A stretch of 64,000 bases of DNA from Psychrobacter sp. PG1 (lineage in GTDB: Bacteria > Pseudomonadota > Gammaproteobacteria > Pseudomonadales > Moraxellaceae). The stretch spans positions 124,001 to 188,000 of the forward strand of contig NZ_JABUZG010000084.1 in the NCBI RefSeq assembly GCF_014897815.1, in the 5' to 3' direction. Below the pieces are notes generated by a model. It worked only from the letters and a program-made list of their open reading frames with translations, searched no databases and was not told where the DNA came from. The translations under genes and the position numbers were made by a program. Of this stretch, positions 2,953 to 64,000 are shown piece by piece (position 1 is the stretch's first letter; each line of letters begins with the position of its first letter).

Positions 2953-4740
2953 TCAATGCAATGGCACCACTCGCATTACTTCTTCTATGGTCGTCAGCCC
3001 TTCACTAATACGCTTTGCACCCGATAAGCGCAATGGCTGCACACCTTCGCGGTACGCTTGCTGCTTAAGCACATCTAAATTGGCATCGGCGGCGACCAGT
3101 TTTTTTAGCTCATTTGACAACGGCATGATCTCGTACAGACCAACGCGACCTTGATAGCCCGTATGGCGACAATGCTCGCAGCCTTGCGCCGTATAAATTT
3201 GCGCTGGAGCGGGCGCACGCCAAGGCTGAACCAATTCCTGCCACTGAATAGCAATTTCACTGTCTGGGATTACGTCTAGAGCTTTTTTGCAATGCGGACA
3301 TAAGGTGCGTAGCAAACGCTGCGCCATGACGCCTAATATCGTCGCTGAGGTTAAAAACGGCTGAATGCCCAAATCATGCAAGCGAGTAAGTGAGCTTGGT
3401 GCATCATTGGTATGCAACGTCGAGAGTACCAAATGTCCAGTGAGTGATGCTTGTACTGCCATATTGGCGGTTTCGGCATCGCGAATCTCACCAACCATAA
3501 TGATATCTGGGTCTTGGCGCATCAAAGAGCGAATACCATCGGCAAAGTGCAAATCAACCCCTGGATTAACCTGCATTTGGTTGAAAGCTGGTTCAATCAT
3601 CTCGATAGGATCTTCAATCGTACAAACGTTAACTTGTTCTGTGGCGAGCTGCTTAAGCGTACTGTACAACGTCGTAGTCTTACCTGAACCCGTTGGCCCT
3701 GTGACCAAAATAATACCGTTGGGATGCGCTGTCAGCTCATGCCAAGTATCGAGCTGTTTACCTGACAAACCAAGCTGAGCAAACGAGCGCACCAGCACTT
3801 CAGGGTCAAATACCCGCATCACCAGCTTTTCGCCAAAGGCTGTCGGCATCGTCGATAGGCGCAGCTCAGTTTCTAGACCCTTTGGCGTACGGGTTTTCAA
3901 CCTACCATCTTGTGGTTTGCGTTTTTCTGCCACATTCAGTCGTCCTAATATTTTAATCCGCGCCGTCACCGCGACAATGATTGCCAAAGGCATCTCATAG
4001 ACGGTATGTAGCACGCCATCGATACGAAAACGGACTTTACCCGTCTCACGGCGAGGCTCTAAATGGATATCACTGGCTCGCTGCTCAAAAGCATATTGCA
4101 ACAACCAATCGACAACTCTGACAATATGTTGATCGTTGGCATCAGGGTTGGTATTGTCGCCCAGTTGCAATAATGCCTCAACATTGGTGACATCAGCCGC
4201 CGCCCGCTTATGGACACTATTTGCTCCTGCAATCGCTTGGGTGACTTGGTAAAACTCTTGACGGTAGCGATTGATTTGCTCAGGATTGATATAAACCGTA
4301 CGATAGCTTTTAGACTTGATTAATTTTTCGATACTTGTCTGCCACTCCGTACAAAACGGCTGGTCTGTACCGATGACGACTTCATCATTCGTCACTTCAA
4401 TGGGCAAAATATGCTGTGAGCGGGCATATTCAAAGGACATCAGTTGGGTCACGGCTGGGACATCGACTTTTAATGGATCAATACGGACAAGTGCCATGCC
4501 TGCTTTGGCAGCCAACCATTGATTCAACCATACCAAAGTCAATTTATGCTCAACGTTTTTATCGAGTGCATGACCGTTTGGCAGACCAAATTCACTGATG
4601 GTCAGGAGTGGATGCTGCGCTTTATCACGGCGGCTCGTCATCACTAAATTGTAGCCACGCTGATCAATTACCTTATCTGCCAATAGTTCATCTAAGCACC
4701 AACGTAAATCAATCACGATTGAATATTTCTGAGCAGACAT
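2953..4740 (-). CDS. gspE: GspE/PulE-type secretion ATPase
   Basis: The 595-residue protein is a hexameric cytoplasmic ATPase powering assembly of a type II secretion pseudopilus. An N-terminal GspE/PilB platform domain spans about residues 60-165. The ATPase core carries Walker A GPTGSGKTTT (348-357), an Asp box around 375-382, Walker B with DPDIIMVGEIRD (410-421) and the His box near GHLVLSTLHTN (435-445). A tetracysteine zinc site (Cys 481, 484, 521, 524) lies in the C-terminal part. The overall form fits GspE, although some PilB-like proteins are similar. No other T2SS gene is adjacent, which is unusual for enterobacteria but seen where gsp genes are scattered. GspE versus PilB is inferred. 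Confidence 0.85.
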   Translation of the reverse strand: MSAQKYSIVIDLRWCLDELLADKVIDQRGYNLVMTSRRDKAQHPLLTISEFGLPNGHALDKNVEHKLTLVWLNQWLAAKAGMALVRIDPLKVDVPAVTQLMSFEYARSQHILPIEVTNDEVVIGTDQPFCTEWQTSIEKLIKSKSYRTVYINPEQINRYRQEFYQVTQAIAGANSVHKRAAADVTNVEALLQLGDNTNPDANDQHIVRVVDWLLQYAFEQRASDIHLEPRRETGKVRFRIDGVLHTVYEMPLAIIVAVTARIKILGRLNVAEKRKPQDGRLKTRTPKGLETELRLSTMPTAFGEKLVMRVFDPEVLVRSFAQLGLSGKQLDTWHELTAHPNGIILVTGPTGSGKTTTLYSTLKQLATEQVNVCTIEDPIEMIEPAFNQMQVNPGVDLHFADGIRSLMRQDPDIIMVGEIRDAETANMAVQASLTGHLVLSTLHTNDAPSSLTRLHDLGIQPFLTSATILGVMAQRLLRTLCPHCKKALDVIPDSEIAIQWQELVQPWRAPAPAQIYTAQGCEHCRHTGYQGRVGLYEIMPLSNELKKLVAADANLDVLKQQAYREGVQPLRLSGAKRISEGLTTIEEVMRVVPLH

Positions 4741-49808: not shown

Positions 49809-50054
49809 ATTGTCCAAAAACTATCGCTGGTCAATCGCAAAAATCAGTGCTTATATAGAAGATAATATCGATGAATATTGATTCAGCACGTTCTTTATAG
49901 AGGTAATGACAAACGCGTTTTAATTTCTTATTGCCATAAGTTACATTACTGTCATAATATGGACGTAATGATCAATGGATTGATTACTTTGATGTTAGCC
50001 CGTTATCTCAGCATGCACATAACATTGACTCGGGTAACCTGCACTCTCTAACCT

Positions 50055-51122
50055 ATGAGCCCCAATAAAATGACCTTTGCTACTACTTTACGCTTCAGCC
50101 TATTCGGTGCTGCTATGAGCGCCGCGCTTGGATTAATTGGCTGCTCAAACACGACCGACACTGCTGCAACGACAGATACAAGTGCCGCCGCAGATTCTGA
50201 CAAGCCTGCCAAGACATTAGCCATCACTCAAATCGTCGAACATCCTTCGTTAGATGCGATGCGTCGCGGCATTATTGATGAGTTGGCAGATAATGGCTAT
50301 GTTGAAGGCCAAAATCTAACCATTAATTTTCAAAGTGCTCAAGGCAATACAGCGACAGCAGGTCAGATTGCGAAGCAGTTTGCAGGAGACAATCCAGATG
50401 CCATCGTGGCAATCTCGACGCCATCAGCTCAGTCTATCGTTGCGTCAACTAAGACGATTCCGGTTATTTATACGGCTATTTCAGACCCTGTCGCGGCAAA
50501 GCTCATTAATGAGAACAATACGCCTATCCAATCTAATGTGACAGGACTGTCTAGTGAGCTACCTATCGAGCCGCAACTGGACAATATTCAAAAAATTGCG
50601 CCTAATGCAAAAACCATTGGCTATGTTTATAGTCCAGGTGAGGTCAATTCGGTGGTGGTACTCAATCAACTAAAAAAAGCTGCGCCTGCGCGTGGGCTTA
50701 AGATATTAGACGTAACCGCCAATCGCCCAACGGATGTGGCGATGGCGACTCGTAGCCTTGCTGGTCGTGTTGATGTGATTTATACCTCACTAGATAATAA
50801 TGTGGTATCCGCCTTTGAAGCGATGGCAGGTGCTGCCAATGAGCTTGATATTCCTGTCATTGCCTCAGACGAGTTCAGTGTGCGACGTGGTGCAACTGCG
50901 GCACTTGGTGTCAATGATTATGACTTTGGTCGTACCACAGGCAAAATGGTGTATCGTGTTTTAAATGGCGAAGCAGTTAGTAGCGTTAAGCCTGAAGTGA
51001 TGAATACTTTAACCTTATATGCAAGCCCGAAACATGCGGCTGAGCAAGGCTTCAGCCTGACTGATGAGCTGCTAAAAAATGCCATTAATATCGACAAACA
51101 AGCGCAGAGTGCGGATAAATAA
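50055..51122 (+). CDS. ABC transporter substrate-binding lipoprotein (TrpX-like, paralog 1)
   Basis: The 355-residue protein has a lipoprotein signal (AAMSAALGLIGCSNTTD, lipobox LIGC). The ABC_sub_bind fold is visible in KTLAITQIVEHPSLDAMRRGIIDELADNGYVEGQNLTINFQSAQGNTATAGQIAKQF, GYVYSPGEVNSVVVLNQLKKAA, DVIYTSLDNNVVSAFEAMAGAANELDIPVIASDEFSVRRGA and ALGVNDYDFGR. The family imports amino acids such as tryptophan in streptococci, but substrate here is unknown. It starts the trpXX'YZ-like unit, which includes a second close paralog. A 13-bp tandem repeat overlaps the stop region. Confidence 0.85.
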   Translation: MSPNKMTFATTLRFSLFGAAMSAALGLIGCSNTTDTAATTDTSAAADSDKPAKTLAITQIVEHPSLDAMRRGIIDELADNGYVEGQNLTINFQSAQGNTATAGQIAKQFAGDNPDAIVAISTPSAQSIVASTKTIPVIYTAISDPVAAKLINENNTPIQSNVTGLSSELPIEPQLDNIQKIAPNAKTIGYVYSPGEVNSVVVLNQLKKAAPARGLKILDVTANRPTDVAMATRSLAGRVDVIYTSLDNNVVSAFEAMAGAANELDIPVIASDEFSVRRGATAALGVNDYDFGRTTGKMVYRVLNGEAVSSVKPEVMNTLTLYASPKHAAEQGFSLTDELLKNAINIDKQAQSADK

Positions 51123-51147
51123 TACGGATAAATAATACGGATAAATA
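51113..51147 (+). repeat. 13-bp tandem repeat at the stop codon of the first binding-protein gene
   Basis: GGATAAATAATAC occurs at 51113-51125 and 51126-51138, with a partial third copy to 51147. The first copy holds the TAA stop, and the next copies bring additional in-frame or out-of-frame stops. Confidence 0.85.
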
Positions 51148-51282
51148 GTTTTGACAAGTAGCACTGAAAAATAACATTTAGCCTTCTATATAGATGGCTC
51201 GCTTTACCCTTTATCCATCTATACCTTTTATCTATAAATTAAATAATGTACGGACACATTATTATTTTCAGGAGTGAGACCC

Positions 51283-52323
51283 ATGTTGTATCAAAATCGT
51301 TTTGGTCATTTTAACTTTAGTAAAGCACTATTATTAGGTGGCGTTTGTACTGCCATCTTGACTGGCTGTAATCAATCAGCACAAGATACCAGCACCACTG
51401 ATACAGCTGCGACTGGCGATGCAGCCACGGCTATGAAGACTGTCGCAATCACAGCTATCGTCGAACATCCAGCGCTTGATGACGTCCGTAAGGGCGTTAT
51501 CGACGAGCTTAATGAAGCAGGCTTTAAGGATGGTGAAAATTTAAAGGTTAATTTCCAAAGCGCACAGGGTAACACTGCCACTGCTGGACAGATTGCTAAG
51601 CAATTCGTCGCAGACAATTCAGACGTTATCGTTGCGATTGGTACTCCATCAGCGCAGTCAGTAGCTGCTGCTACTAGCAGTATCCCTTTAGTATTCTCAG
51701 CAGTCACTGACCCAGTTGCCGCCAAACTAGTGACCAAACTAGATGGCTCTGGCACCAATGTCACTGGCGGCTCTGATGCCCTGCCTTATGAGCCACAAAT
51801 TGAATTGATGCGTCAAATCATCCCGAGCCTGAAGAATGTCGGCTATGTTTATAGCCCAGGCGAAGTCAACTCAACGATTATCTTGAAAAACTTAAAAGAA
51901 AAACTGACACCACTAGGTATCAATGTACTCGAAGCGCCTGCCCAGCGTAGTACTGATATTGCGATGGCAGCACGTAGCCTCGAAGGTAAGGTCGATATGA
52001 TCTATACCTCAACCGATAATAACGTCGTATCGGCTTACGAATCACTATATCAAGTCGCTAAAGAGAGCAAAATCCCACTGATTGCGTCTGACACTAGCTC
52101 CGTTGAGCGTGGTGCCGTTGCTGCATTGGGCGTGAATTACTACGAGCTTGGTCGCGAAACAGGCAAAATCGTGGTACGTATTTTAAATGGTGAAAAAGCA
52201 GGCGCTATTCCTGTCTACACCCCGCAAATGTTGGATCTATACGTTAGTCCAAAGCATGCCAAAGAAGAAGGCATTACTTTGTCACAAGCGGTTATCGATA
52301 AAGCAAAAGAAGTGGTAGAATAA
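51283..52323 (+). CDS. ABC transporter substrate-binding lipoprotein (TrpX-like, paralog 2)
   Basis: The 346-residue lipoprotein (lipobox LTGC in GGVCTAILTGCNQSA) is closely related to the preceding gene: KTVAITAIVEHPALDDVRKGVIDELNEAGFKDGENLKVNFQSAQGNTATAGQIAKQF and MIYTSTDNNVVSAYESLYQVAKESKIPLIASDTSSVERGAVAALGVNYYELGRETGK. Differences are concentrated in the middle and C-terminal parts. The ATG at 51283 has AGGAGTGAG upstream; three upstream codons in frame are not needed. It probably feeds the same permease/ATPase with a different specificity or affinity. Confidence 0.87.
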   Translation: MLYQNRFGHFNFSKALLLGGVCTAILTGCNQSAQDTSTTDTAATGDAATAMKTVAITAIVEHPALDDVRKGVIDELNEAGFKDGENLKVNFQSAQGNTATAGQIAKQFVADNSDVIVAIGTPSAQSVAAATSSIPLVFSAVTDPVAAKLVTKLDGSGTNVTGGSDALPYEPQIELMRQIIPSLKNVGYVYSPGEVNSTIILKNLKEKLTPLGINVLEAPAQRSTDIAMAARSLEGKVDMIYTSTDNNVVSAYESLYQVAKESKIPLIASDTSSVERGAVAALGVNYYELGRETGKIVVRILNGEKAGAIPVYTPQMLDLYVSPKHAKEEGITLSQAVIDKAKEVVE

Positions 52324-52753
52324 CGCACTTTTATAGCTAGCTCATTACAGCTATCATAAGGTAGATATCGAGTTTGATGGATTTGGTGTCAGCCGTCATC
52401 TACCTTTATGCGATGAGGCTAAATGTTTAACATCAGAAACCCAGCTATGAATCAGTAGGCTGGGCTTCTTATTTAAACCACATTGATTAAATATAAAGTA
52501 TTTGCGTCATTTCTAAATTTGCCCTTTTTTTAATCAAAGCTTTGAACCTAGGTAGCTTATGATAGCTGTTGATCGTGACATGTTTTGGTTTACCCTAACC
52601 GCAGATTGTTTAATCTGTTAAATTCACCGCTTAGTCGTTTAGCTAAAATTGACGTATAGATGAGACAGCGCTGATCTATATCACGCACTCATTCTATGAA
52701 TCGATATTAGAACGTTAGTTGCTAAACGCTTGGTTATGACTTACTGATCTCTT
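52324..52753. other. 430-bp intergenic before the ABC permease gene
   Basis: A weak terminator-like hairpin (CCCAGC/GCTGGG, 52440-52464, poor T-run) could reduce readthrough from the binding-protein genes. Another short inverted repeat AGATT-gttt-AATCT lies near 52607. No ORF. Confidence 0.45.
52440..52470 (+). terminator. Weak terminator-like hairpin
   Basis: CCCAGC/GCTGGG stem with 13-base loop followed by CTTCTTATTT rather than a pure T-run; may act as a partial terminator between binding-protein and permease genes. Confidence 0.45.
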
Positions 52754-53653
52754 ATGTCTTTAATTGCTTTTTTTGGTGCACTTGAAAGCGGTCTGATTTA
52801 TGGCCTAGTAGCACTTGGTGTGCTGATCTCATTTCGCACCCTCGACTTCCCCGACTTGACCGCTGACGGTAGTTTTCCACTAGGTGGCGCTGTCGCTGGT
52901 ATTTCTATCATCGCTGGTGTCAACCCATGGCTTGCCTGTGCTTTTGGTATGTTGGCAGGTTCAGTCGCTGGTATTGTTACGGCATGGCTACACGTCAAAC
53001 TTGGCATCCTGCAACTACTTGCCAGTATCTTGGTGATGGTCGCACTATATTCTATCAATTTACGGATTATGGGTGCGCCGAACTTGCCATTATTGGGTGA
53101 AACCACGGTCTTTAGCACCTTGGTCACTGATGGCAACGGTTATTGGATGCGCTGTCTAATTATTGGTGTCGTGGTGATAGCTGCCATGTTATTTTTAAAC
53201 TGGTTCTATAGTACCGAAACGGGTCTTTCGATGCGGGCGACGGGTTCCAACCTCCGCATGGCACAGGCGCAAGGCATCAATACCTCATGGATGACCATCA
53301 TTGGTATGGCGATTTCTAATGGTTTGATTGCTCTAGCAGGTGCATTGTTTGTGCAGACTCAAGGTGGCGCAGATATCTCGATCGGTATTGGTACCATTGT
53401 CATCGGTTTGGCAGCGGTCATCATCGGTGAAACCATCATTCCTGCCAAGCGAATTTGGCTGATTACCTTTGCCGTGGTCGTCGGTGCGGTGCTGTACAAG
53501 CTATTTATTCAGGTGGCGCTATCGAGCGATACGCTCCGTAGTATTGGTTTTGGTCCGCAAGATTTAAACTTGATTACAGCGCTACTCGTCGTATTTGCCT
53601 TGGTATTGCCAAAAGCTAAAAATAAATTTTTAAGTCGTAAAGTTCGGGCTTAA
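52754..53653 (+). CDS. ABC transporter permease (TrpY-like)
   Basis: The 299-residue protein has about eight to nine hydrophobic segments. It begins FFGALESGLIYGLVALGVLISFRTLDFPDLTADGSFPLGGAVAGISII, the signature of the binding-protein-dependent permease family that accompanies ABC_sub_bind proteins. GLSMRATGSNLRMAQAQGINTSWMTIIGMAISNGLIALAGALF, close to the EAA-like region, contacts the ATPase. It follows two binding-protein genes and precedes the ATPase gene. Confidence 0.88.
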   Translation: MSLIAFFGALESGLIYGLVALGVLISFRTLDFPDLTADGSFPLGGAVAGISIIAGVNPWLACAFGMLAGSVAGIVTAWLHVKLGILQLLASILVMVALYSINLRIMGAPNLPLLGETTVFSTLVTDGNGYWMRCLIIGVVVIAAMLFLNWFYSTETGLSMRATGSNLRMAQAQGINTSWMTIIGMAISNGLIALAGALFVQTQGGADISIGIGTIVIGLAAVIIGETIIPAKRIWLITFAVVVGAVLYKLFIQVALSSDTLRSIGFGPQDLNLITALLVVFALVLPKAKNKFLSRKVRA

Positions 53654-53684
53654 TGTCAATGTGCAACCATAAGGAATAATTATT

Positions 53685-54479
53685 ATGATGCAAGCTACAG
53701 ATTTGCGGTTGACCTTTAATCCTGGAACGCCCATTGAAAACCCTGCCCTACGCGGTATCAATCTCAACATCGCTGATGGTGAATTTGTCACTGTCATCGG
53801 TACCAATGGCGCGGGTAAATCAACCTTTTTAAATGCGGTCAGTGGTACCACGCGCGTCGATAGCGGTTCAATCTTATTAAATGGTATCGATGTCACCAAA
53901 AAGACCGCGCACCAACGCGCCCATTGGGTGGCTCGTGTCTTCCAAGACCCGATGGCGGGGACTTGTGAAGCATTAACCATCGAAGAAAACATGGCGCTGG
54001 CTTATAAGCGCGGCGGCAAACGTGGTTTGAGCTTTGCACTCAACCAAAATAACCGTGATTTATTTCGCGAAAAATTATCAGTATTAAAATTGGGGCTAGA
54101 AAATCGTCTGACCGACCGTATGGGTCTGTTATCCGGTGGTCAACGTCAAGCCGTCAGCCTATTGATGGCTTCATTGCAACCTTCCAAAATTTTATTGCTT
54201 GATGAGCATACTGCTGCCCTCGACCCTAAGACTGCTGCTTTCGTTTTAGAATTGACCGATAAAATTGTAACGGACAATCAGCTTACAACGATGATGGTTA
54301 CCCACTCGATGCAGCAGGCATTGGCGCATGGCACCAGAACAGTGATGTTACATCAAGGACAAGTGGTATTAGATGTGGCTGGCGATAAACGTCAAGGCAT
54401 GACTGTACATGACTTACTTGATATGTTTGAGCAAACTCGCGGCGAAAAAGTCGAAGATGATAGCTTGATATTGAGTTAA
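53685..54479 (+). CDS. ABC transporter ATP-binding protein (TrpZ-like)
   Basis: The 264-residue ATPase has Walker A TVIGTNGAGKSTFL near residue 37, the Q-loop FQDPMAG, signature LLSGGQRQAVSLLMA and Walker B ILLLDEHTAALDPK (His in place of Pro after DE). It energises the neighbouring permease. The start MMQATDLRL uses the first of two adjacent ATGs. It ends the unit, before a terminator. Confidence 0.92.
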   Translation: MMQATDLRLTFNPGTPIENPALRGINLNIADGEFVTVIGTNGAGKSTFLNAVSGTTRVDSGSILLNGIDVTKKTAHQRAHWVARVFQDPMAGTCEALTIEENMALAYKRGGKRGLSFALNQNNRDLFREKLSVLKLGLENRLTDRMGLLSGGQRQAVSLLMASLQPSKILLLDEHTAALDPKTAAFVLELTDKIVTDNQLTTMMVTHSMQQALAHGTRTVMLHQGQVVLDVAGDKRQGMTVHDLLDMFEQTRGEKVEDDSLILS

Positions 54480-54516
54480 ATAACTTAGCAAAATTCTTCA
54501 ACTCTTGAAAAAATAG

Positions 54517-54546
54517 AACGTCTGTTTAATATCAGGCGTTTTTTTA
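54517..54546. terminator. Convergent intrinsic terminator after the ABC ATPase gene
   Basis: AACGTCTG/CAGGCGTT stem (one G-T pair) with eight-base loop and T-run on the plus strand. It separates the ABC unit from the minus-strand response regulator. Confidence 0.8.
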
Positions 54547-54579
54547 TGACTGCTTTAATTGATACGACTGTCTTAATTT

Positions 54580-55257
54580 TTAAGCATCAAGCAATACTAA
54601 CTTTTGAATCAACTCACTGACATGTTGTGACTGCATTTTTTTCATCACTTGTGAGCGATGCACCTCTACCGTGCGGACCGATATATCTAAATGGTTGGCG
54701 ATATTTTTATTCAGATTGCCTTGCAGTAACTCATTGGCGACCTGCTTTTCTTTATCGGTCAGCTGCGCATAAAGATTTTTAATATCATAAAGCGTGGCGC
54801 GTTTTAGAGTGAGGTCTTGCGCACGCGCAAGCGCTTCTTGTAGCCGGCGGCTATTAATCGGTTTTTCCAGATAGTCAGCCGCACCTTGCTTCAGCATATT
54901 GACAGCATCAGCAATCTCGCCATTTCCCGTTAGCGCTATCAATGCCATAGGGCTGTCCTGTTGACTAAGGTGCACTTGTAGCGCTTGACCACTCATCTCT
55001 GGCATCATCAAATCACTCACAATCACTGCTGGACGATAGATATTGACTTGCTGTAAAAATATCAGAGCACTTGCCCACACTTGGGTCGATAGCCCTAAGC
55101 TGCTAATCAAAAAATCACAGGACATGCGCACACTTTCTTCGTCGTCAATGATATGAATGATAAGCGATTCTGGCGTAATGCCTGATAAATCGTCAGACAG
55201 ATGACTGCTTTCATCTTGCCAGCACGTAGGCTCATTTGAGAGTTGATTAGACGTCAT
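54580..55257 (-). CDS. FixJ/TtrR-type response regulator
   Basis: The 225-residue protein has an N-terminal receiver domain with acidic residues in IHIIDDEESV, phosphoacceptor Asp82 in VSDLMMPEMSGQ and the Lys in LEKPIN. A C-terminal LuxR/GerE HTH (LTDKEKQVANELLQGNLNKNIANHLDISVRTVEVHRSQVMKKM) completes it. The start at 55257 is preferred because AAGGT is five bases upstream; a longer frame starts 8 codons earlier without a ribosome binding site. It is encoded just after the sensor kinase gene, about 36 bases apart from it (12 in the long form). Tetrathionate or thiosulfate response is inferred from the kinase and the neighbouring tsd genes. Confidence 0.88.
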   Translation of the reverse strand: MTSNQLSNEPTCWQDESSHLSDDLSGITPESLIIHIIDDEESVRMSCDFLISSLGLSTQVWASALIFLQQVNIYRPAVIVSDLMMPEMSGQALQVHLSQQDSPMALIALTGNGEIADAVNMLKQGAADYLEKPINSRRLQEALARAQDLTLKRATLYDIKNLYAQLTDKEKQVANELLQGNLNKNIANHLDISVRTVEVHRSQVMKKMQSQHVSELIQKLVLLDA

Positions 55258-55293
55258 ATGTGACCTTATGGCTAAATACATTATTGATATTCA

Positions 55294-57399
55294 TTAGAGT
55301 TTTTCGTCATTATTCGCTAAAGATAATGACAGATAAAAAGATATTTGTGCGCCCACCGTGTTTGACAGCTGATAGTTAGCATTGGTTTGTAGCAACTGTA
55401 TTTTACCGTTTAAGCTACGTTTAAAGCGTCGGTGCTCGCTGCTCATTACTTGGTAAACTTGCTCAATTTCAGGTTCGGCATCAATATTATTTAGCTGCAT
55501 CATACCGCCCAGCGACTTGCATAAGCGCTGACATATCATCAGTCCTAATCCTAGACCGCCTGCTTTCGTTGATTGAGTGGCATACTGACTGGGTAGGTTC
55601 TCTGGTAGGTGCTGTGCTTTAAGCTGGGCTTGATCAAAGCCGCCAGCATCATCGCTTAGATGCAATACCAGCCATTGCTTGCCATCGTGTTCTTCTGCCT
55701 GACAGCGTAGCATGATATTGGTCGCCCCTTGCTGCGCAGCATTGGTCATGCTATTTATCAATAACTGATCTAATAATAAATTTGGCAAGGTTAAATGCTG
55801 GTAATCACTTGCCAGCCAAAAATTGACACCTACTGCTTGCTCACCCAATAATAAGATGCACTGTTGATAGATAGCTGCGATATCGACACGAGTTTCATTC
55901 GCTTGCGACCGTCCAGCCCAGCGGCGAATATTAGTCACTACAGCAGCGACGCGTTCTGTTTCACATACAATCTGCTGTAGAGCATTCTCTGTTGCCGCAC
56001 TATCAAGTGGCGCTATGTCGATAGCATTTTTAGACAAACTTGCGTGTTGACTGCGTATCAATAACCCTTGCGCATAATTTTGAATGGTTGCCAGCGGCTG
56101 ATTGATTTCATGAGCGATAGCACCGCTCATCTCACCGATGACCGCAAAGCGCTCTGATTGGTGTAACTGCTGATCATAATCACGGATTAGTCTATTTTGC
56201 CGCACTATCTTTTTTTGCCGCCGCCATGCCAGCCAGCTCATCCAAGCATAATTTACTGTCGATATCAGGATAACCAAAATAATCACAGCCATCCACAATC
56301 GATGCGCCTTTATCCAGTCGATCATATGCGCGCTCAGCTGCTTTTGGGCGGGATGACGATTCATCTCATAAAGGATGCGCTCAGCATCGCTACTCGATTC
56401 TGCTGGCAACCAGCGCTGCTCTGCTTGACTCTTGCCAAATAAATGTTGATTGATCTGGCGCACCAAAGCATCTGGCGCTTGCTCGGTCGCTGCCAGTGTC
56501 CAATTTGGATATATTTTCGTTGAAGAGTGGCAGCTAGATACAGTGGCGACTGGGTGAATGAGACGGTACTGCTTGTCATTGATTTGACCGCGCCTTGCCA
56601 TCTCCTCCATCAAACAAAGCGGCGTAATGGCAGCGTCTACCTTGCCACTAGCCAAGGCATGCAAAGTGCGCTCTATCGGATAACCGACAAACTGTGTTTG
56701 ATAGTGACTTGGCGTGATGCCATTTTGCTGTAATAAATGCGCGCCCAATAAATAACCGCCAAATGCGTCAGTGTCGACGGCAGCAATATGACGTTGCTCT
56801 AAATCCTGCAAACGATAAATATCACTGTCGGCAGCAACCCATAAAGCACTGGCGACCTCTTCCATCGCACTCGGCTGTTTTAATGGCGTATATTCATTTA
56901 GCTTATTAAATTCATTGGCGAGGGTGACTGTCGTCGATAGCTGATTTTGCGATTGTTGCCCATTAACACCCTCAGCATCAAATCCTTGATTGCTAAAAAT
57001 TTTATCACGAGGACTTTTATCACGAGCGTTTTGCGCATTGCTATTTAATTGAGCCGTCTCTGTTTGTAAGGTAGCCAGCCAGCGCCACCTGATGGTATTC
57101 ATTTTTATAAACTGTACTTGCGGGCCAAGCACTAGCGCAAACTGCTGTGCTTCTATTTGCTGTTGCCAATTCTCCAGCGCCAAAGGTACCAATATCACGG
57201 TGTCATCTGATAACTGATCATTAAGCTCGTCAAGCCACGGCTGCCAGCGATTTTGTGCGGCTGTTTCGCCTTGCGGTGCCAGCACACCCAAATAGTAGGT
57301 CTGGGCGGTTGCCTTGGATAGCGGCAACCAAGCAACCGATGCCACAACGATAATAAAACAGGTCTTTAAGATAGTCCAAATTTTAGACTTTTTATGCAT
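55294..57399 (-). CDS. Sensor histidine kinase with PhnD-type periplasmic sensor (TtrS-like)
   Basis: The 701-residue protein has a signal-like N-terminus, then a PhnD/TtrS-like periplasmic binding domain of about 300 residues (QTYYLGVLAPQGETAAQNRWQPWLDELND; VAAVDTDAFGGYLLGAHLL; VGYPIERTLHALASGKVDAAI). A transmembrane helix spans 368-390. The kinase part has phosphoacceptor His430 in GEMSGAIAHEINQPLATIQ, N-box with N549 and N553 (INSMTNAA), and GLGLGLMICQRL. A Gln/Asn/Ser-rich insert sits at about 112-165. TtrS senses tetrathionate in Salmonella; the neighbouring TsdA makes tetrathionate, which fits. The pair is divergent from tsdBA. Confidence 0.87.
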   Translation of the reverse strand: MHKKSKIWTILKTCFIIVVASVAWLPLSKATAQTYYLGVLAPQGETAAQNRWQPWLDELNDQLSDDTVILVPLALENWQQQIEAQQFALVLGPQVQFIKMNTIRWRWLATLQTETAQLNSNAQNARDKSPRDKIFSNQGFDAEGVNGQQSQNQLSTTVTLANEFNKLNEYTPLKQPSAMEEVASALWVAADSDIYRLQDLEQRHIAAVDTDAFGGYLLGAHLLQQNGITPSHYQTQFVGYPIERTLHALASGKVDAAITPLCLMEEMARRGQINDKQYRLIHPVATVSSCHSSTKIYPNWTLAATEQAPDALVRQINQHLFGKSQAEQRWLPAESSSDAERILYEMNRHPAQKQLSAHMIDWIKAHRLWMAVIILVILISTVNYAWMSWLAWRRQKKIVRQNRLIRDYDQQLHQSERFAVIGEMSGAIAHEINQPLATIQNYAQGLLIRSQHASLSKNAIDIAPLDSAATENALQQIVCETERVAAVVTNIRRWAGRSQANETRVDIAAIYQQCILLLGEQAVGVNFWLASDYQHLTLPNLLLDQLLINSMTNAAQQGATNIMLRCQAEEHDGKQWLVLHLSDDAGGFDQAQLKAQHLPENLPSQYATQSTKAGGLGLGLMICQRLCKSLGGMMQLNNIDAEPEIEQVYQVMSSEHRRFKRSLNGKIQLLQTNANYQLSNTVGAQISFYLSLSLANNDEKL

Positions 57400-57652
57400 A
57401 CACCTAGCCTTATATTTGACCTACTAAACGTACATTATAGTAAAAACCTTAATTCTAATGTGGTTTTCCACAATATCACAATATTACCCGCTACCCTATA
57501 CTAGATGACAGTCGTGTAACTTTTAATTCGCTGAGCTTAAAGCACAAATATTCGATTTCAATTTTGATTTCAATAAGAATGATTAATACACCTCATGAAA
57601 TATGGGTGATGAATTATAAGCTTGGTAAAAATATCTTATGGAGGGCGGGCTT

Positions 57653-59029
57653 ATGAAAAAATGGCCACTGATTATAATAATAGCAGCCATCATCGGGCTG
57701 GTGGTTGCCTTTATTATTGGGCAATTACTGCCAAATATGCGCACCAGCAGTAGCGATATCGAGATCAATATCACTGATCCTGCTCTCATCAAGCAGGGCG
57801 AATATATCGCTCGCACTGCTGACTGTATTGCGTGTCATACCACGCTCGATGGCGAGACTTATGCAGGCGGTCTGCCTATGCTAACGCCACTTGGGGCAAT
57901 TTACTCGACCAATATCACACCCGATCAAGAAACTGGCATCGGCAACTACAGTTTCGCCGACTTTAAAAATGCCGTTAAGCATGGGGTACGCAGTGATAAT
58001 AAAGCCTTATATCCTGCTATGCCGTATCCCTCTTACCAGCTCATGCCAGAAGAAGACTTAGCCGCGATGTACGCCTTCTTTATGTCCGATGTCACAGCCG
58101 TCAAGCAAGCCAATCTAAAAAGCGAGCTACCTCCGATAGCAAACTGGCGCTGGCCCTTGGCATACTGGCAGGTCTTATTTGATCGCAAGCGTGACTTTGT
58201 CCCTGAGACAGACGACGCACTATTGACTCGTGGTCAATACTTAGTCGAAGGTCCTGGGCACTGCGGCTCTTGTCATACTGGGCGCGGTATTGGCTTTCAA
58301 GAAATCGCTCTAAGTAATGCAGATTCTAACAAGTATTTGAGCGGTGCCATCATCGATGGTTGGCGCGCCAAAAGTATCCGCGGTGAGCATCGCGGACTTG
58401 GCACTTGGACGGTTGCAGAATTAAATGACTTCTTCAAAACTGGTCGTACTGATACCACTGCTGCCTTTGGTGCCATGGCCGAAGTGGTTGAGCATAGCAC
58501 CCAGTATATGACCGACTACGACATCAACGCCATGTCATCTTATCTAAAAACATTAACGCCAGCACCAAACAAAGAAGCCACACTGCCTGCGAAAAAAGAC
58601 ATCACTACGCAAAAATTACTAGATGGTGACTATGATTCGCGCGGTTCGATTTTGTACGCCGAATATTGCCAAATTTGTCACCGTGTCGATGGTAAAGGAG
58701 TCGCGCGTATTTTCCCAGCGCTTGATGGCAATAGTGCGGTTTATTCTAACAATGCCGATTCGGTCTTACAGATTACCTTGAGCGGTGGTCGTATGCCTGA
58801 AACTCCACATGACCGTATGGCATTTACTATGCCTGAATTCAGCAATCTTAGCGATGCAGATGTGGCAGAAGTGGTCAATTATGTCCGCAATAGCTGGACC
58901 AACCAAGCGCCTGAAATCGATGTCAATGACGTGGTAAAAATGCGGGCTTTCCTCGCCAAAAAACCAAAAACCAGTACGGATATTGCTCCAGACTTAAGTA
59001 TTGACGCGCAAACAAAAGGAGCAAAATAA
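57653..59029 (+). CDS. tsdB: Membrane-anchored triheme cytochrome c, probable TsdA electron acceptor
   Basis: The 458-residue protein has an uncleaved N-terminal anchor (WPLIIIIAAIIGLVVAFIIG, about 4-23) and three CxxCH heme sites (CIACH 58-62, CGSCH 204-208, CQICH 339-343). The layout resembles the triheme cytochrome subunit of membrane alcohol/gluconate dehydrogenases, which pass electrons to ubiquinone or oxidases. Position before tsdA suggests it takes electrons from thiosulfate oxidation, the role of diheme TsdB in Pseudomonas stutzeri; three hemes are unusual. The start at 57653 has GGAGG with good spacing; an ATG at 57638 is not used. Its stop overlaps the tsdA start. Confidence 0.85.
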   Translation: MKKWPLIIIIAAIIGLVVAFIIGQLLPNMRTSSSDIEINITDPALIKQGEYIARTADCIACHTTLDGETYAGGLPMLTPLGAIYSTNITPDQETGIGNYSFADFKNAVKHGVRSDNKALYPAMPYPSYQLMPEEDLAAMYAFFMSDVTAVKQANLKSELPPIANWRWPLAYWQVLFDRKRDFVPETDDALLTRGQYLVEGPGHCGSCHTGRGIGFQEIALSNADSNKYLSGAIIDGWRAKSIRGEHRGLGTWTVAELNDFFKTGRTDTTAAFGAMAEVVEHSTQYMTDYDINAMSSYLKTLTPAPNKEATLPAKKDITTQKLLDGDYDSRGSILYAEYCQICHRVDGKGVARIFPALDGNSAVYSNNADSVLQITLSGGRMPETPHDRMAFTMPEFSNLSDADVAEVVNYVRNSWTNQAPEIDVNDVVKMRAFLAKKPKTSTDIAPDLSIDAQTKGAK

Positions 59030-59997
59030 TGAAAAAATCTCCACTCAACTTGCCTACTATTGCTCGCGTTATCTCTCAAAAAATGACCATAGGCAACTTA
59101 ACCACCGCTATCCTTACTGCTTCAGCGCTTAGTATCGCCGCTATCAGTAGTGGTTGCTCGCAGCCCGAGCCTATCGAGCAGAATGCACCTGAGTACGGCT
59201 TAGTCACCACTGATGATGCCAACGAAGATATCGGCACTTATGTGCTGCCGCAAGATACGGCTATCTTGGATGAACCAAATGCTGATGAGATATTTTATGG
59301 TAAACGCTTATTAAACGAAACTAAGCGCTTACTGCCAGAGCATGTGGGCGCGCAAATGAACTGTAACAGCTGCCATATTTCACAAGGTAAAATTCCACTG
59401 GGTGATCCGTACATCAATAGTTATAACTTCTATCCGCGCGTGATGCCACGATCTGGTAAGGAAGTTGATTTAACCAAACGTATTAATGGCTGCTTCCAGC
59501 GCTCAATGAATGGCAAACCGTTGAAACCTGAATCCCCTGAAATGCTGGCAATGTTGGCTTATATGAAGTGGCTATCGCAAAACACCCCAAAAGAGCAAAA
59601 AGTCGATATCCAAAATACGGGTAAAGTGGATGAATCATTAACCCCAGACCCTGTCCGCGGCGAACAAATTTATAAAGCTCAATGTGCAACTTGTCATGGT
59701 GATAATGGCGAAGGCATCAAAGACAGTCGCGGCGATATCGTGTTCCCGCCACTGTGGGGCGATGAATCCTTTAATATCGGTGCTGGTATGGCACGTACTT
59801 ACAAGGCGGCAGCCTTTGTAAAATACAACATGCCCATGGGTATTCAGACCAAAGGCTTATGGGGTCACGGAAATGTGCTGAGCGATCAAGATGCCGTCGA
59901 TGTGGCGCACTTCTTTACTCATCAGCCGCGCCCTGACTTTGCTGGTAAGGTCAATGATTGGCCAAATGGTAAAAAACCTAAAGACGCGCGTTACTGA
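59029..59997 (+). CDS. tsdA: Thiosulfate dehydrogenase (TsdA, diheme cytochrome c)
   Basis: TsdA oxidises thiosulfate to tetrathionate in the periplasm. The 322-residue protein has an N-terminal signal (ALSIAAISSGC, possibly a lipobox at Cys43), a first heme site CNSCH (112-116) and a second CATCH (219-223). The conserved GCFQRSMNG motif places Cys155 where the family's cysteine axial ligand of heme 1 is expected. NSYNFYPRVMPRSGKEVDLTKRINGCFQRSMNGK is a TsdA fingerprint. TAATG overlap with the upstream triheme gene shows translational coupling. A downstream terminator precedes the tnpB element. Confidence 0.9.
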   Translation: MKKSPLNLPTIARVISQKMTIGNLTTAILTASALSIAAISSGCSQPEPIEQNAPEYGLVTTDDANEDIGTYVLPQDTAILDEPNADEIFYGKRLLNETKRLLPEHVGAQMNCNSCHISQGKIPLGDPYINSYNFYPRVMPRSGKEVDLTKRINGCFQRSMNGKPLKPESPEMLAMLAYMKWLSQNTPKEQKVDIQNTGKVDESLTPDPVRGEQIYKAQCATCHGDNGEGIKDSRGDIVFPPLWGDESFNIGAGMARTYKAAAFVKYNMPMGIQTKGLWGHGNVLSDQDAVDVAHFFTHQPRPDFAGKVNDWPNGKKPKDARY

Positions 59998-60094
59998 TAT
60001 CTTAAGAAGACGGTATTTATAAAGACTTTACTTAAGAGGACTTCACTTAGCAGACATCATTCTATGCTCGCTTGTGAGTGAGCATTGACACGAT

Positions 60095-60133
60095 AAACCT
60101 TTAAGAAAATGCATTTTTCTTAAAGGTTTTTTT
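60095..60133 (+). terminator. Intrinsic terminator of tsdBA
   Basis: AAACCTTTAAGAAA pairs with TTTCTTAAAGGTTT (long A/T-rich stem) followed by a T-run. Confidence 0.88.
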
Positions 60134-60138
60134 GTTAT

Positions 60139-61651
60139 CTATCAAACCCGCGAAAGAGGACGCCATCCGACATTAGGGTGGCGGTGAATTTCGCATCATT
60201 TTCAATGTTTAAATTACATAATATGCGCCTGAATCCAGTATAATAATTAATTATTGTAATACTTATAACTCACCACGAGCATTTATGAAAATCAACAAAG
60301 CGTATAAATTTAGGCTTGAGCCTAATACGGAGCAAGAGGTTATTTTAAATAATCTTGTCGGCTCTGCACGTTTTGTTTGGAATCAAATGCTGGCAATCTC
60401 ATTTGAGATGTTTGCTAAAGATGAGTTTATTAATGCCACCAATCTGGTTAATAAAATTATAGATTTAAAAAGTAATCCTGATTTTAACTTCCTAAAAAGC
60501 AGCTCAAACGCTGTGTCTTTACAACAAAAAGTACGCGATCTGGCATCGGCTTGGTCGCGGTTCTTTGATCCTAAAGTACATGCCAGATTAAAAGACAATA
60601 AAAAGAAACCTCGCAAACCCAAGTTCTTTAAACTGGCTGACGGCACAGAAATCCAGCTACGCTCGTTGATGCCAAGATTTAAGCGCAAATCCGATGGCTG
60701 CGACTCAATTCGCTTGGTTCAGTTTGATAAATATTGCCGTGTTGAAGGTAATCGAGTAAAACTGCCTAATGGCATTGGCCTGGTGAAGTTTAGGAAGTCG
60801 CAAGACATCATTGGTACAATTAAAAATGTCACCATCAGCAAGAAATCAGGGCACTGGTACGTGTCTTTTGGTACGGAGCGAGAACTGGATGAGAACCCTC
60901 GTCACCCTGCCACAAGCGCCATTGGCTTGGACATGGGTATCAGCAAACTACTCACCACTTCAAACGGTCAGTACATCAAACCGAAAAACAGTTTTAAAAC
61001 CAATCAACTCAAACTTGCCAAATTGCAACGAGGGTTAGCAAAGAAAGTAAAATTCAGTGAAAACTGGAAAAAGCAAAACCGCAAGATTCAAAAGCTACAC
61101 AGCCACATTGCTAATATTCGCCATGACTACTTGCATAAAGTCACCACCCGCATCAGCAAAAACCACGCCATGATTGCTTGTGAGGATTTAAAGGTCGCTA
61201 ATATGTCGAAATCAGCCAGCGGGTCGGTGGAGAACAAAGGTCGTCATGTTAAAGCCAAGTCGGGATTAAACAAATCAATCCTAGATCAAGGCTGGGGCAT
61301 GATGGTTAATATGCTTGAGTACAAACAGCAATGGCGCGGTGGGTTACTGATCAAGGTAAACCCACACTACACCAGTCAAACCTGTTCTCAATGTCAGCAT
61401 ATTGCTAAAGAGAATAGACAAACTCAGTCTAAATTTGAGTGCGTCAAATGTAGGTATGTTGCGAACGCTGATTTTAATGCGGCTCGTAATATATTAGCGG
61501 CAGGACATGCCGTTTTGTCTGCGGAGGGAGGATGCAGTAAGGGTCGCCCGTTGAAACAGAAAACAAGCGACCTTCGTGAGAAAGTCGCCTAAGAGCATCT
61601 GCTTTTAGAATCCCCCACTTGAGCTTGGCGAAAGTGGTGGGAGTATGTCAA
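60139..61651 (+). mobile_element. IS200/IS605-type (IS1341-like) tnpB-only element
   Basis: The left end has an imperfect hairpin at 60150-60194 (GCGAAA outer, CGCCATCC/GGGTGGCG inner). The right end has a hairpin at 61612-61641 (CCCCCACTT/AAGTGG-t-GGG), directly preceded by GAAT and followed by a TCAA at 61648-61651. These tetranucleotides match guide and cleavage motifs recalled for IS608. The left boundary is less certain; a TTAT at 60135-60138 just precedes it. No Y1 transposase (tnpA) is present. It lies right after the tsdA terminator. Confidence 0.7.
60285..61592 (+). CDS. tnpB: TnpB RNA-guided endonuclease
   Basis: The 435-residue protein is an OrfB/TnpB nuclease, ancestor-type relative of Cas12. 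It starts KINKAYKFRLEPNTEQ (HTH_OrfB). RuvC-like catalytic residues are intact: Asp216 (GLDMG), Glu300 (CEDLK), Asp396 (NADFNAARN). The zinc-finger cysteines 367, 370, 386 and 389 (CSQC, CVKC) are present. Length is near typical. TnpB uses an omega-RNA from the element's 3' end to cut DNA at the donor site. No tnpA accompanies it, so mobility would need a transposase in trans. No frameshift is seen; likely functional by residues. Confidence 0.93.
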   Translation: MKINKAYKFRLEPNTEQEVILNNLVGSARFVWNQMLAISFEMFAKDEFINATNLVNKIIDLKSNPDFNFLKSSSNAVSLQQKVRDLASAWSRFFDPKVHARLKDNKKKPRKPKFFKLADGTEIQLRSLMPRFKRKSDGCDSIRLVQFDKYCRVEGNRVKLPNGIGLVKFRKSQDIIGTIKNVTISKKSGHWYVSFGTERELDENPRHPATSAIGLDMGISKLLTTSNGQYIKPKNSFKTNQLKLAKLQRGLAKKVKFSENWKKQNRKIQKLHSHIANIRHDYLHKVTTRISKNHAMIACEDLKVANMSKSASGSVENKGRHVKAKSGLNKSILDQGWGMMVNMLEYKQQWRGGLLIKVNPHYTSQTCSQCQHIAKENRQTQSKFECVKCRYVANADFNAARNILAAGHAVLSAEGGCSKGRPLKQKTSDLREKVA

Positions 61652-61668
61652 AGTTAATGCTTCTACAA
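61500..61668 (+). ncRNA. Predicted omega-RNA (reRNA) of tnpB
   Basis: In known TnpB systems the scaffold spans the tnpB 3' end and the right-end hairpin, and the guide is the roughly 16 bases just past the right end. Here GCGAC/GTCGC pairs within the last codons (61567-61588), then the right-end hairpin, ending at 61651. The guide would begin at 61652 (AGTTAATGCTTCTACA). Boundaries at the 5' end are guessed. Confidence 0.4.
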
Positions 61669-61738
61669 ACTTCTCGCTCGTCACTATATAGTTGCTGTAT
61701 ATCAAAGTTCGCTACCGCCATTTACTATGAGGTCTGTC

Positions 61739-64000
61739 ATGCGCAAAATTCCTGTCTACTCCCACCCTGCTGCCGGTTGGCCTGCGCTGATTTCCTCTAC
61801 TCGTAAGCTGATGGATTATCAGACTTTTTTACGGGGTAGCGTAAGTGTGCTAAAAAGCAACCAACCTAAAGGCGGATTCGACTGTCCGGGCTGCGCTTGG
61901 CCTGACCACAAATCACATAAAGCCATCGACGTCTGTGAAAATGGTATCAAAGTCATTGCTAGTGAGACCATGACAAAAAAAGCCGATGCGCAGTTTTTTG
62001 CGCGACATAGCGTCACTGAATTACAAGGCTGGTCGGGCTATGAGCTTGAGCATAGTGGTCGTTTATCAGAGCCTGTATATTATGATGCCGCGCAAGACCG
62101 CTACTTACCAATCTCTTGGGAAGCTGCTTATCAATGTATCGCTGAGCAGTTAGGACAGCTTGATTCGCCAGATGAGGCGCTATTTTATACCTCAGGCCGT
62201 GTGACCAACGAGCCCGCCTTTATGTATCAGCTGTTTGTGCGCTGTTTTGGCACCAATAATTTACCAGATTGCTCCAATATGTGTCACGAACCAACGTCGG
62301 TAATGCTCGGTAGACAGTTGGGTATTGGCAAAGCGACCGTGAAATTGGAAGACTTTGAGCAAGCCAAACTGATATTGATGTTTGGACAAAATCCTGCGAC
62401 CAATCATCCACGCATGCTTGAAATGCTTGCTCATGCTCACGAGCAAGGCTGTCGAATCCTCTCAATCAACCCTATGCGCGAACAAGGCTTACGTAAATTT
62501 AGAAATCCGCAAAAGCCCACGCATATGGCAGCTGGTCAAAGTGATGAGATGGTCGATGAGGTCATTCAAATTCAGATCGGCGGCGATGCAGCACTCTTGA
62601 CCGGTATCGCTAAGTGGCTGACTAAAAACAATAAAATCGATCAAAGCTTTATCGATGAGCATACGTCAGGATATGAGGCACTCGACGCATGGCTGCGCCA
62701 ACAATCATGGCCTGATGTGGAACGCGGGTCTGGTATCAGTAAAGAGGAAATCATTATTATAGCAAAACTGGTAGCGGCGAGTCCTGCGACCATTTGCACC
62801 TGGGGCATGGGCATCACTCATCACGTCCAAGGCGATGACAATGTAGCGATGATTACCAACCTATTATTATTAATGGGTATGATTGGTATTGATGGCGCAG
62901 GCGCGTCTCCCGTCCGTGGTCACTCTAACGTACAGGGCGACCGTACCATGGGCATCCATGAGCGCCCTGCACAAAAGCTACTAGACAGCCTTGAGCGTGT
63001 GTTTGAACGTCCGATGCCGCAAGAAAATGGCTTTGATGTGGTCTCTGGTGCAAAAGCATTGATTGCCGGTAAGCTAAAAGTATTTATGAGTATGGGCGGT
63101 AATTATGCCGTGGCAGCACCTGATACCAGTGCAATTCAGCAAGCTTTAACCACCACTCAGCTCAATATTTTTGTCGGTACTAAACTTAATGAAACTATGC
63201 TGTATCCGGGCGCGAACAATCTTATTCTGCCTTGCTTAGGTCGTACCGAACGTATTATTACTGCCAAAGGTGAGCAATTTGCCACTATCGAAGATTCCAT
63301 GTGTCAGATTGTACCCACTCGAGGCAACCTGAAACCCGTCAGCGATACGTTGAAATCTGAAGCACAAATTGTGGCAGATATCGCCACTCATTTGCTTGGT
63401 GCTGATTCGTCCATTCCTTGGCAAGCAATGAGTGAAGACTTTGACATCGTTCGTGATTATATCGCCCAAGCGATTGACGGTTTTGAAGACTTTAATCAGC
63501 GTATTCGCGAAACCGAGCGTGGCTTTCATTTGTACCATTCTGCGCGGCATCGTGTGTGGAATACTGACAGTGGCAAAGCGCAATTTGAAGTACCACAATA
63601 CCCTATCACCTACGTCGCAGCACAAATGGCAGAGACCTCTTTAGCCTTTCACCATGACAAAAAACCCAATGATAATACTAATAGTGCGCCAAACAATGAA
63701 CAAAAAATTTGGCAATTGACCAGTGTCCGTAGCCATGACCAATTTAATACCATGATTTTCGGATTTGAAGATCGCTATCGCCAAACCACTCGCCGTGATG
63801 TGTTGTTTATGCACCCAGATGAAATGACTCGTTTGGGTTGGCAAGCAGGTGACCGAGTAATGGTATCTCGCCATGCCAGCTCAAATGGTTCAAATAACAC
63901 AGACGGTACCGCTCAGCCACGCACGCTAGGGCCGTTAGTATTGACTGAGATGGATATCGCCGCTAACGCTGTCGCAACTTATTATCCTGAATGTAATGAT
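61739..64000 (+). CDS. FdhF/YdeP family molybdopterin oxidoreductase (right-truncated)
   Basis: From the ATG at 61739 (GAGG upstream) the frame stays open for 754 codons to the window edge, with no stop visible. The translation begins MRKIPVYSHPAAGWPALISSTRKL; DCPGCAWPDHKSHK and, near residue 178, CSNMCHEPTSVMLGRQLGIGK are YdeP-type motifs. Later GQNPATNHPRMLEMLAHA, GADDN-like loops, GDDNVAMITNLLLLMGMIGIDGAGASPVRGHSNVQGDRTMG and LNETMLYPGANNLILPCLGRTER are typical. YdeP proteins are molybdenum oxidoreductases, linked to acid resistance in E. coli; substrate is unknown. It likely ends within a few dozen codons. Confidence 0.85.
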   Translation, partial: MRKIPVYSHPAAGWPALISSTRKLMDYQTFLRGSVSVLKSNQPKGGFDCPGCAWPDHKSHKAIDVCENGIKVIASETMTKKADAQFFARHSVTELQGWSGYELEHSGRLSEPVYYDAAQDRYLPISWEAAYQCIAEQLGQLDSPDEALFYTSGRVTNEPAFMYQLFVRCFGTNNLPDCSNMCHEPTSVMLGRQLGIGKATVKLEDFEQAKLILMFGQNPATNHPRMLEMLAHAHEQGCRILSINPMREQGLRKFRNPQKPTHMAAGQSDEMVDEVIQIQIGGDAALLTGIAKWLTKNNKIDQSFIDEHTSGYEALDAWLRQQSWPDVERGSGISKEEIIIIAKLVAASPATICTWGMGITHHVQGDDNVAMITNLLLLMGMIGIDGAGASPVRGHSNVQGDRTMGIHERPAQKLLDSLERVFERPMPQENGFDVVSGAKALIAGKLKVFMSMGGNYAVAAPDTSAIQQALTTTQLNIFVGTKLNETMLYPGANNLILPCLGRTERIITAKGEQFATIEDSMCQIVPTRGNLKPVSDTLKSEAQIVADIATHLLGADSSIPWQAMSEDFDIVRDYIAQAIDGFEDFNQRIRETERGFHLYHSARHRVWNTDSGKAQFEVPQYPITYVAAQMAETSLAFHHDKKPNDNTNSAPNNEQKIWQLTSVRSHDQFNTMIFGFEDRYRQTTRRDVLFMHPDEMTRLGWQAGDRVMVSRHASSNGSNNTDGTAQPRTLGPLVLTEMDIAANAVATYYPECND

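What the first reader, a model, noticed from the sequence alone, without database searches (positions are those of the whole stretch)
60139..61668. Intact tnpB-only IS605-type element with readable ends and predicted guide
Both end hairpins, the GAAT guide tetranucleotide immediately 5' to the right hairpin, and TCAA at the right boundary can be read. The TnpB catalytic DED residues and zinc cysteines are intact. Without tnpA it depends on a transposase in trans or is retained for TnpB activity alone. The predicted omega-RNA guide starts at 61652, and the target-adjacent motif would be near the TTAT at 60135-60138, allowing a testable prediction of the empty site.
Basis: partly seen in the sequence, partly recalled or inferred. 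Interest (0 to 1): 0.6.

Follow-up and report, generated by a model that had tools for sequence, protein, structure and literature searches.

The report
Transposase-less TnpB element spread by recombination
A small bacterial jumping gene that has lost its jumping enzyme but kept an RNA-guided DNA cutter sits at exactly the same spot in several Psychrobacter genomes, and its DNA and flanks look as if it was recently copied between them by recombination, as a cutter aimed at empty sites would favour.

Summary
The element is real and complete: a tnpB-only IS200/IS605-family (IS1341-type) insertion with end hairpins, intact TnpB and a folded right-end guide RNA. CTAT precedes 14 of 14 close tnpB-only copies read. 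Relatives with tnpA share both ends, but this genome's only Y1 match is a REP-associated transposase. A second tnpB-only insertion, shared by four genomes, shows the same, in one with only about 0.1 kb and 0.3 kb of shared flank. So the insertion moved between lineages by recombination of its flanks, rather than by repeated transposition or vertical descent. TnpB cutting empty alleles (homing) would explain and bias this; that step is inferred, and passive recombination is not excluded.

The parts
60143..61651 (+). whole element, 1509 bp, inserted between ...GTTATCTAT and AGTTAATG...
   Evidence: empty sites, 16 of 16 that I aligned
60139..60142 (+). CTAT, left cleavage site / predicted TAM, kept in the flank and in the empty site
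   Evidence: 16 of 16 empty sites; CTAT before 20 of 23 left-end-bearing loci read by eye, 14 of 14 tnpB-only ones; two diverged tnpB-only copies (L090 second copy, L105) read TTAT and were not counted
60150..60194 (+). left-end hairpin (outer stem GCGAAA/TTTCGC, inner stem CGCCATCC/GGGTGGCG)
   Evidence: DNA fold, 2 of 200 shuffles as good; compensated stem change between copies, GCCATCC/GGGTGGC against TCCACCC/GGGTGGA (read by eye)
60285..61592 (+). tnpB, 435 aa, RuvC motifs and zinc cysteines present
61567..61651 (+). predicted right-end RNA (omega RNA/reRNA) scaffold, three hairpins overlapping the tnpB 3' end
   Evidence: RNA fold of 61545-61671, z -4.4, 0 of 200 shuffles as good; 24 consensus pairs over 26 sequences, 4 of them with a both-side change
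61608..61611 (+). GAAT, right guide tetranucleotide of the IS608 type (role recalled)
   Evidence: invariant in 26 of 26
61611..61642 (+). right-end hairpin
61648..61651 (+). TCAA, right cleavage site
61652..61667 (+). flanking DNA = predicted 16-nt guide AGTTAATGCTTCTACA
   Evidence: CTAT plus its first 15 nt occurs exactly in 11 of 105 genus genomes; 0 of the 5 carriers have it even with two mismatches
61739..64000 (+). start of the downstream FdhF/YdeP-family oxidoreductase gene (runs off the window); neighbour, not part of the element

Best explanation
A tnpB-only member of a Psychrobacter IS605-type family. Shown: it sits precisely between CTAT and AGTTAATG; it keeps both ends and a conserved TnpB; no IS200-type transposase was found in its genome; and the same insertion moved recently between lineages together with short pieces of flanking chromosome, so homologous recombination carried it. 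Inferred: TnpB and its right-end RNA, whose guide copies the right flank, cut the empty allele (CTAT plus target) when carrier and empty DNA meet in one cell, and repair from the element-bearing copy installs the element. It would thus act as an RNA-guided homing element that no longer needs transposition. Element identity about 0.97; lateral spread by recombination about 0.85; TnpB as the driver about 0.4.
For: Exact empty sites. CTAT plus 15 nt of guide: exact in 11 of 105 genus genomes, within two mismatches in 21 of 105, in 0 of 5 carriers. Site 1: the four other carriers are 99.80-100% identical to the window over the element and 99.88-99.94% over 58500-60142, but 96.0-96.4% over 55001-57500, where seven non-carriers have 95.6-96.8%. 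Of 49 1-kb windows with all four aligned, all four reach 99.5% only at 59001, 60001 and 61001. Where all seven non-carriers differ from the window, all four carriers match it at every site from -1218 to +1014, and the edges differ by carrier. Site 2 (tnpB-only, G075:C1:916679-918189, also in G004, G008, G022): element 99.9-100% identical; G022 is 96.3% to G075 in the left 600 bp, where six non-carriers have 96.3-97.5%. Of 93 500-bp windows there, the four in which all three other carriers reach 99.5% lie in two tnpB genes. Other variable segments in these regions were 68-99% alike between genomes, the near-sister pair G000/G029 apart. dN/dS of the window tnpB against 11 copies 0.07-0.11. G075, G004 and G022 have no Y1 match; G000 and G029 one weak one each, that of G000 REP-associated.
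Against: No transcript, cleavage or homing was measured. Sharing a young insertion implies recent common ancestry at that locus whatever the cause. Recombination is frequent here: G029, G075 and G021 match the window at 99.5% or more in four of the five 1-kb windows of 50-55 kb, where there is no such element, and over 49 windows G029 does so in 0.80, G021 in 0.35, G075 in 0.20 and G051 in 0.08. G075 and G021 share the left edge at -2379 with G029, so the number of separate transfers at site 1 is not known. Next to site 2 only three flank alleles (-50, +59, +256) mark all carriers, and further matches to all three carriers occur away from it. Of three multi-genome tnpA+tnpB sites, two lack element-limited identity and one shows it in part. 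Carriers G021, G051 and G008 do hold a strong IS200-type match. The tnpB frame has a one-base gap in the G075 copy and another in the G051 copy; both assemblies are only 85-86% complete, so these may be sequencing errors.
Confidence: 0.55

Rival explanations
1. Passive spread: ordinary recombination between Psychrobacter lineages carries the insertion as a neutral or linked allele; TnpB plays no part.
For: Mosaic near-identical tracts occur elsewhere in the window without a TnpB element.
Against: In the two regions compared, other variable segments were 68-99% alike between genomes, the G000/G029 pair apart, and the tnpB elements at sites 1 and 2 were 99.7-100% in all carriers; purifying selection on tnpB; none of seven non-carriers has the carriers' flanks with an empty site (94.9-97.3% left, 95.6-96.9% right).
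Confidence: 0.36
2. Independent insertions at the same CTAT by a TnpA acting in trans.
For: tnpA+tnpB relatives share both ends.
Against: Carriers share flank alleles that the non-carriers compared lack; G075, G004 and G022 have no Y1 match; CTAT specifies only four bases.
Confidence: 0.02
3. Vertical inheritance from a common ancestor of the carriers.
For: Likely for G000 and G029, which match at 99.5% or more in 0.80 of 49 windows.
Against: G075, G021 and G051 are no closer to the window than non-carriers over 55001-57500, while element and left flank are nearly identical.
Confidence: 0.02
4. Domesticated TnpB used as a regulator or in another host role (TldR-like; recalled).
For: tnpB conserved without tnpA; the element ends 87 bp before an FdhF/YdeP gene.
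Against: Catalytic motifs present; 5 of 105 genus genomes carry it here; the guide addresses the empty allele.
Confidence: 0.05

Closest known systems
IS1341 group of the IS200/IS605 family (tnpB-only)
   Same: tnpB alone between IS605-type ends
   Different: here with empty sites and signs of transfer between lineages; PMC9956272 (passages) calls it unclear whether IS1341 members are autonomous or decayed, and leans to independent evolution
Psychrobacter tnpA+tnpB IS605-type elements (e.g. L065, L070, L071)
   Same: same kind of left and right ends; TnpB 91.6-94.0% identical in the seven nearest
   Different: carry a divergent tnpA (132 aa in L065); the 75-90 bp before tnpB are not detectably similar
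ISDra2 TnpB with reRNA (PMC8612924, passages)
   Same: TnpB family, right-end RNA, guide = right flank, TAM = left flank
   Different: TAM TTGAT there, CTAT here; ISDra2 carries tnpA
TnpB gene drive of IS in plasmids (PMC11870625, parts 1-2 of 5 read)
   Same: TnpB biases against empty alleles
   Different: shown by experiment for plasmids with a tnpA/tnpB IS; here chromosomal, between lineages, without tnpA, inferred from sequence

Membership tests
IS200/IS605 family, IS1341-type (tnpB-only) | TnpB of the RNA-guided endonuclease family | tested here: met
IS200/IS605 family, IS1341-type (tnpB-only) | subterminal hairpins, no target duplication, fixed flanking tetranucleotide | tested here: met
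   hairpins; junction without duplication; CTAT
IS200/IS605 family, IS1341-type (tnpB-only) | no tnpA within the element | tested here: met
IS200/IS605 family, IS1341-type (tnpB-only) | ends recognised by a Y1 transposase in trans | not testable with these tools
   tnpA+ relatives with like ends exist; none found in this genome
TnpB-omega RNA nuclease | right-end RNA with a guide equal to the right flank | tested here: inconclusive
   structure conserved; expression and cleavage not testable
Homing element | nuclease target present in empty alleles and absent from occupied genomes | tested here: met
   (target predicted, not shown)
Homing element | element and short flanks transferred together between lineages | tested here: met
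Homing element | transfer depends on nuclease activity | not testable with these tools
   needs an experiment

The most novel reading that the evidence does not exclude
The element is an RNA-guided homing element: without tnpA it persists and spreads between lineages only by TnpB cutting empty chromosomal alleles and being copied in by repair, which would be a natural chromosomal gene drive in bacteria and an answer to how tnpB-only (IS1341-type) elements persist.
Probability: 0.35. Interest if true: 0.75.

Novelty: new member of a known kind. Interest (0 to 1): 0.5.

Why it matters
How tnpB-only elements persist without a transposase is open (PMC9956272, passages). Here two such insertions in one group of genomes have empty alleles, carrier alleles and tract edges in hand, so homing against passive transfer becomes a direct laboratory test. 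PMC8612924 (passages) proposed that TnpB cleavage could install the element at sites flanked by homologous sequence with TAM and guide match; this would be natural evidence for that. Among the titles and abstracts listed by my searches (several listed only part of their hits) I saw no report of this in chromosomes of natural isolates; the library holds open-licence papers only.

Tried and rejected
Rfam search of 59900-61900 at E up to 1: no match. Sigma-70-type promoter scan of one empty site (L129) and of 59980-61760: none found, so I make no claim about promoter disruption. Control with other IS: 60 stretches around rve (PF00665) matches of 14 genomes, out of the roughly 100 matches listed; pairs from different genomes sharing more than 2.6 kb: 3, none clean (one, L242/L243, has a 99-100% stretch of about 2.4 kb with less similar or unlike flanks). 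It neither supports nor weakens the reading. PF01609 matches were not fetched. The variable-segment scan (segments of 0.5 kb or more, present in at least two and absent from at least two other genomes) served instead; it covers two regions of about 40 kb (more for G008 and G022).

A single loss of tnpA is not supported: tnpB-only copies lie among tnpA+ copies (7 changes, at least 3-4 forced by well-supported branches; one-clade AU p 5.8e-05 for 15 rows lacking tnpA; 31 rows, L105 dropped as partial). But upstream regions of tnpB-only copies do not resemble those of tnpA+ copies and partly conflict with the tree, so exchange of tnpB between element types is as likely as repeated loss.

Site 3 (tnpB with right end but no recognised left end, G075:C1:868445-869739) also shows high identity limited to the gene, but I have no empty site for it, so I do not lean on it. 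L075/L076 proved to be at different sites. Left ends of L081, L093 and L050 were not found by my patterns.

Full report
WHAT IS THERE. The window lies in genome G000 (3.49 Mb, 84 contigs), of the genus Psychrobacter (inferred from the named loci). ORF 60285-61592 is a 435-aa TnpB with the RuvC residues D216, E300 and D396 and four zinc cysteines, related by sequence to the solved ISDra2 TnpB. It is the only TnpB match in this genome at E up to 0.001 with this query.

ENDS AND EMPTY SITES. A 3-kb query matched 100 of 105 genus genomes; 5 have the whole stretch (G000, G029, G075, G021, G051), and in others the two flank matches abut (its list was cut at the weak end). I fetched and aligned 16 junctions: 16 of 16 keep CTAT, followed by AGTT (14) or GGTT (2). 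CTAT stands left of 20 of 23 left-end-bearing loci read by eye, same-site copies counted once: 14 of 14 tnpB-only, 6 of 9 tnpA+ (the others TTAT, ATAT, CTGT). Two diverged tnpB-only copies with another left hairpin read TTAT and were not counted. Hairpins. The right-end RNA folds into three hairpins (z -4.4) kept over 26 copies; covariation is modest, 4 of 24 pairs with a both-side change.

TRANSPOSASE. Relatives with a divergent tnpA have the same kind of ends and, in the seven nearest, a TnpB 91.6-94.0% identical. In this genome the single Y1 match is a REP-associated tyrosine transposase (NF047646, 185 bits, cut-off 80; IS200 model 25.5 bits, cut-off 55). In the genus search G075, G004 and G022 have no Y1 match, G029 one weak match (not classified), and G021, G051 and G008 a strong one. 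Most assemblies are drafts, so absence is not proof.

GUIDE. If the guide is the right flank, as in ISDra2 (PMC8612924, passages), then CTAT plus 15 nt matches 11 of 105 genus genomes exactly, one place each, and 21 of 105 within two mismatches; the 5 carriers have none. The target block is conserved although the sequence around it diverges.

SPREAD BETWEEN LINEAGES, SITE 1. Identity of the four other carriers to the window: 99.80-100% in the element, 99.88-99.94% over 58500-60142, 99.1-99.9% over 61652-63000, but 96.0-96.4% over 55001-57500, where seven non-carriers have 95.6-96.8%. At sites where all seven non-carriers differ from the window, all four carriers match it from -1218 to +1014; G051 departs by -2048, all four at -2379, G075 and G051 at +1106, all at +1170, and all match again from +1896 to +2512. 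Of 49 fully aligned 1-kb windows, three, at the element, reach 99.5% in all four (five reach 99%). G029 is a near sister of G000 (0.80 of windows), so the lateral cases are G075, G021 and G051; how many separate transfers they stand for is not known.

SITE 2. A second tnpB-only insertion (G075:C1:916679-918189) is also in G004, G008 and G022; flanks abut without it in G000, G029, G020, G010, G091, G050, G052 and G009. The element is identical in G004 and G008 and has one change in G022. In G022 the first flank mismatches to G075 are at 103 bp left and 283 bp right (the one at 283 is shared by the other genomes compared, the next is at 339), and its left 600 bp are no closer to G075 (96.3%) than those of six non-carriers (96.3-97.5%). 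G004 shares a longer tract on the left. Of 93 500-bp windows in the stretch holding sites 2 and 3, all three other carriers reach 99.5% in four, all in tnpB genes. The genome tool states one genome per species.

CONTROLS AND LIMITS. In the two regions, other variable segments were 68-99% alike between genomes, the near-sister pair G000/G029 apart (100% in one); an island shared by G029 with G021 and G075 is at 98-99%; the tnpB elements are at 99.7-100%. But near-identical tracts without an element exist too (50-55 kb), so recombination is common here. Of three tnpA+tnpB insertions shared by several genomes, two show no element-limited identity and one does in part. A control with other IS families gave nothing clean. 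dN/dS against 11 copies is 0.07-0.11.

READING. Shown: precise insertion, intact TnpB motifs, predicted guide target in empty alleles and not in carriers, recent transfer with short flanks. Inferred: that TnpB cutting of the empty allele drives the transfer. PMC8612924 (passages) proposed such propagation; PMC11870625 (parts 1-2 of 5) showed a TnpB drive in plasmids. Work on transposon maintenance by TnpB (Meers and others, 2023) is recalled; the paper was not held.

Noticed in passing
window 50001-55000: Transport-type genes (two binding-protein-like, a permease-like and an ATPase-like ORF, read by eye) in a tract at 99.5% or more in G029, G075 and G021 in four of five 1-kb windows: a recombination tract without a TnpB element.
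   Followed up: partly
L101 and L082-L085, from position 4001; G075:C1:868445-869739: A tnpB with right end but no recognised left end, at one place in five genomes, 99.3-100% identical over its first 1.2 kb while the right flank falls to 88-91% in the next 0.8 kb beyond the element.
   Followed up: partly
window 60110-60142 and 61652-61680: The insertion target is a block conserved in the 16 aligned genomes between a terminator and an FdhF/YdeP gene; its role is unknown.
   Followed up: no
L156 (G000:C82:188001-207900): From about 2-4 kb right of the window most of this sequence does not align with the stretches fetched from 12 relatives: a possible genomic island.
   Followed up: no
L003, L066, L074, L088 and L075, L076, L078, L092, L100, 90 bp upstream of tnpB: These tnpB-only copies fall into two upstream-region groups that do not resemble tnpA+ copies and partly conflict with the tnpB tree.
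   Followed up: partly
L002:1468-2022: REP-associated tyrosine transposase gene in the same genome; REP-like repeats around it were not examined.
   Followed up: no
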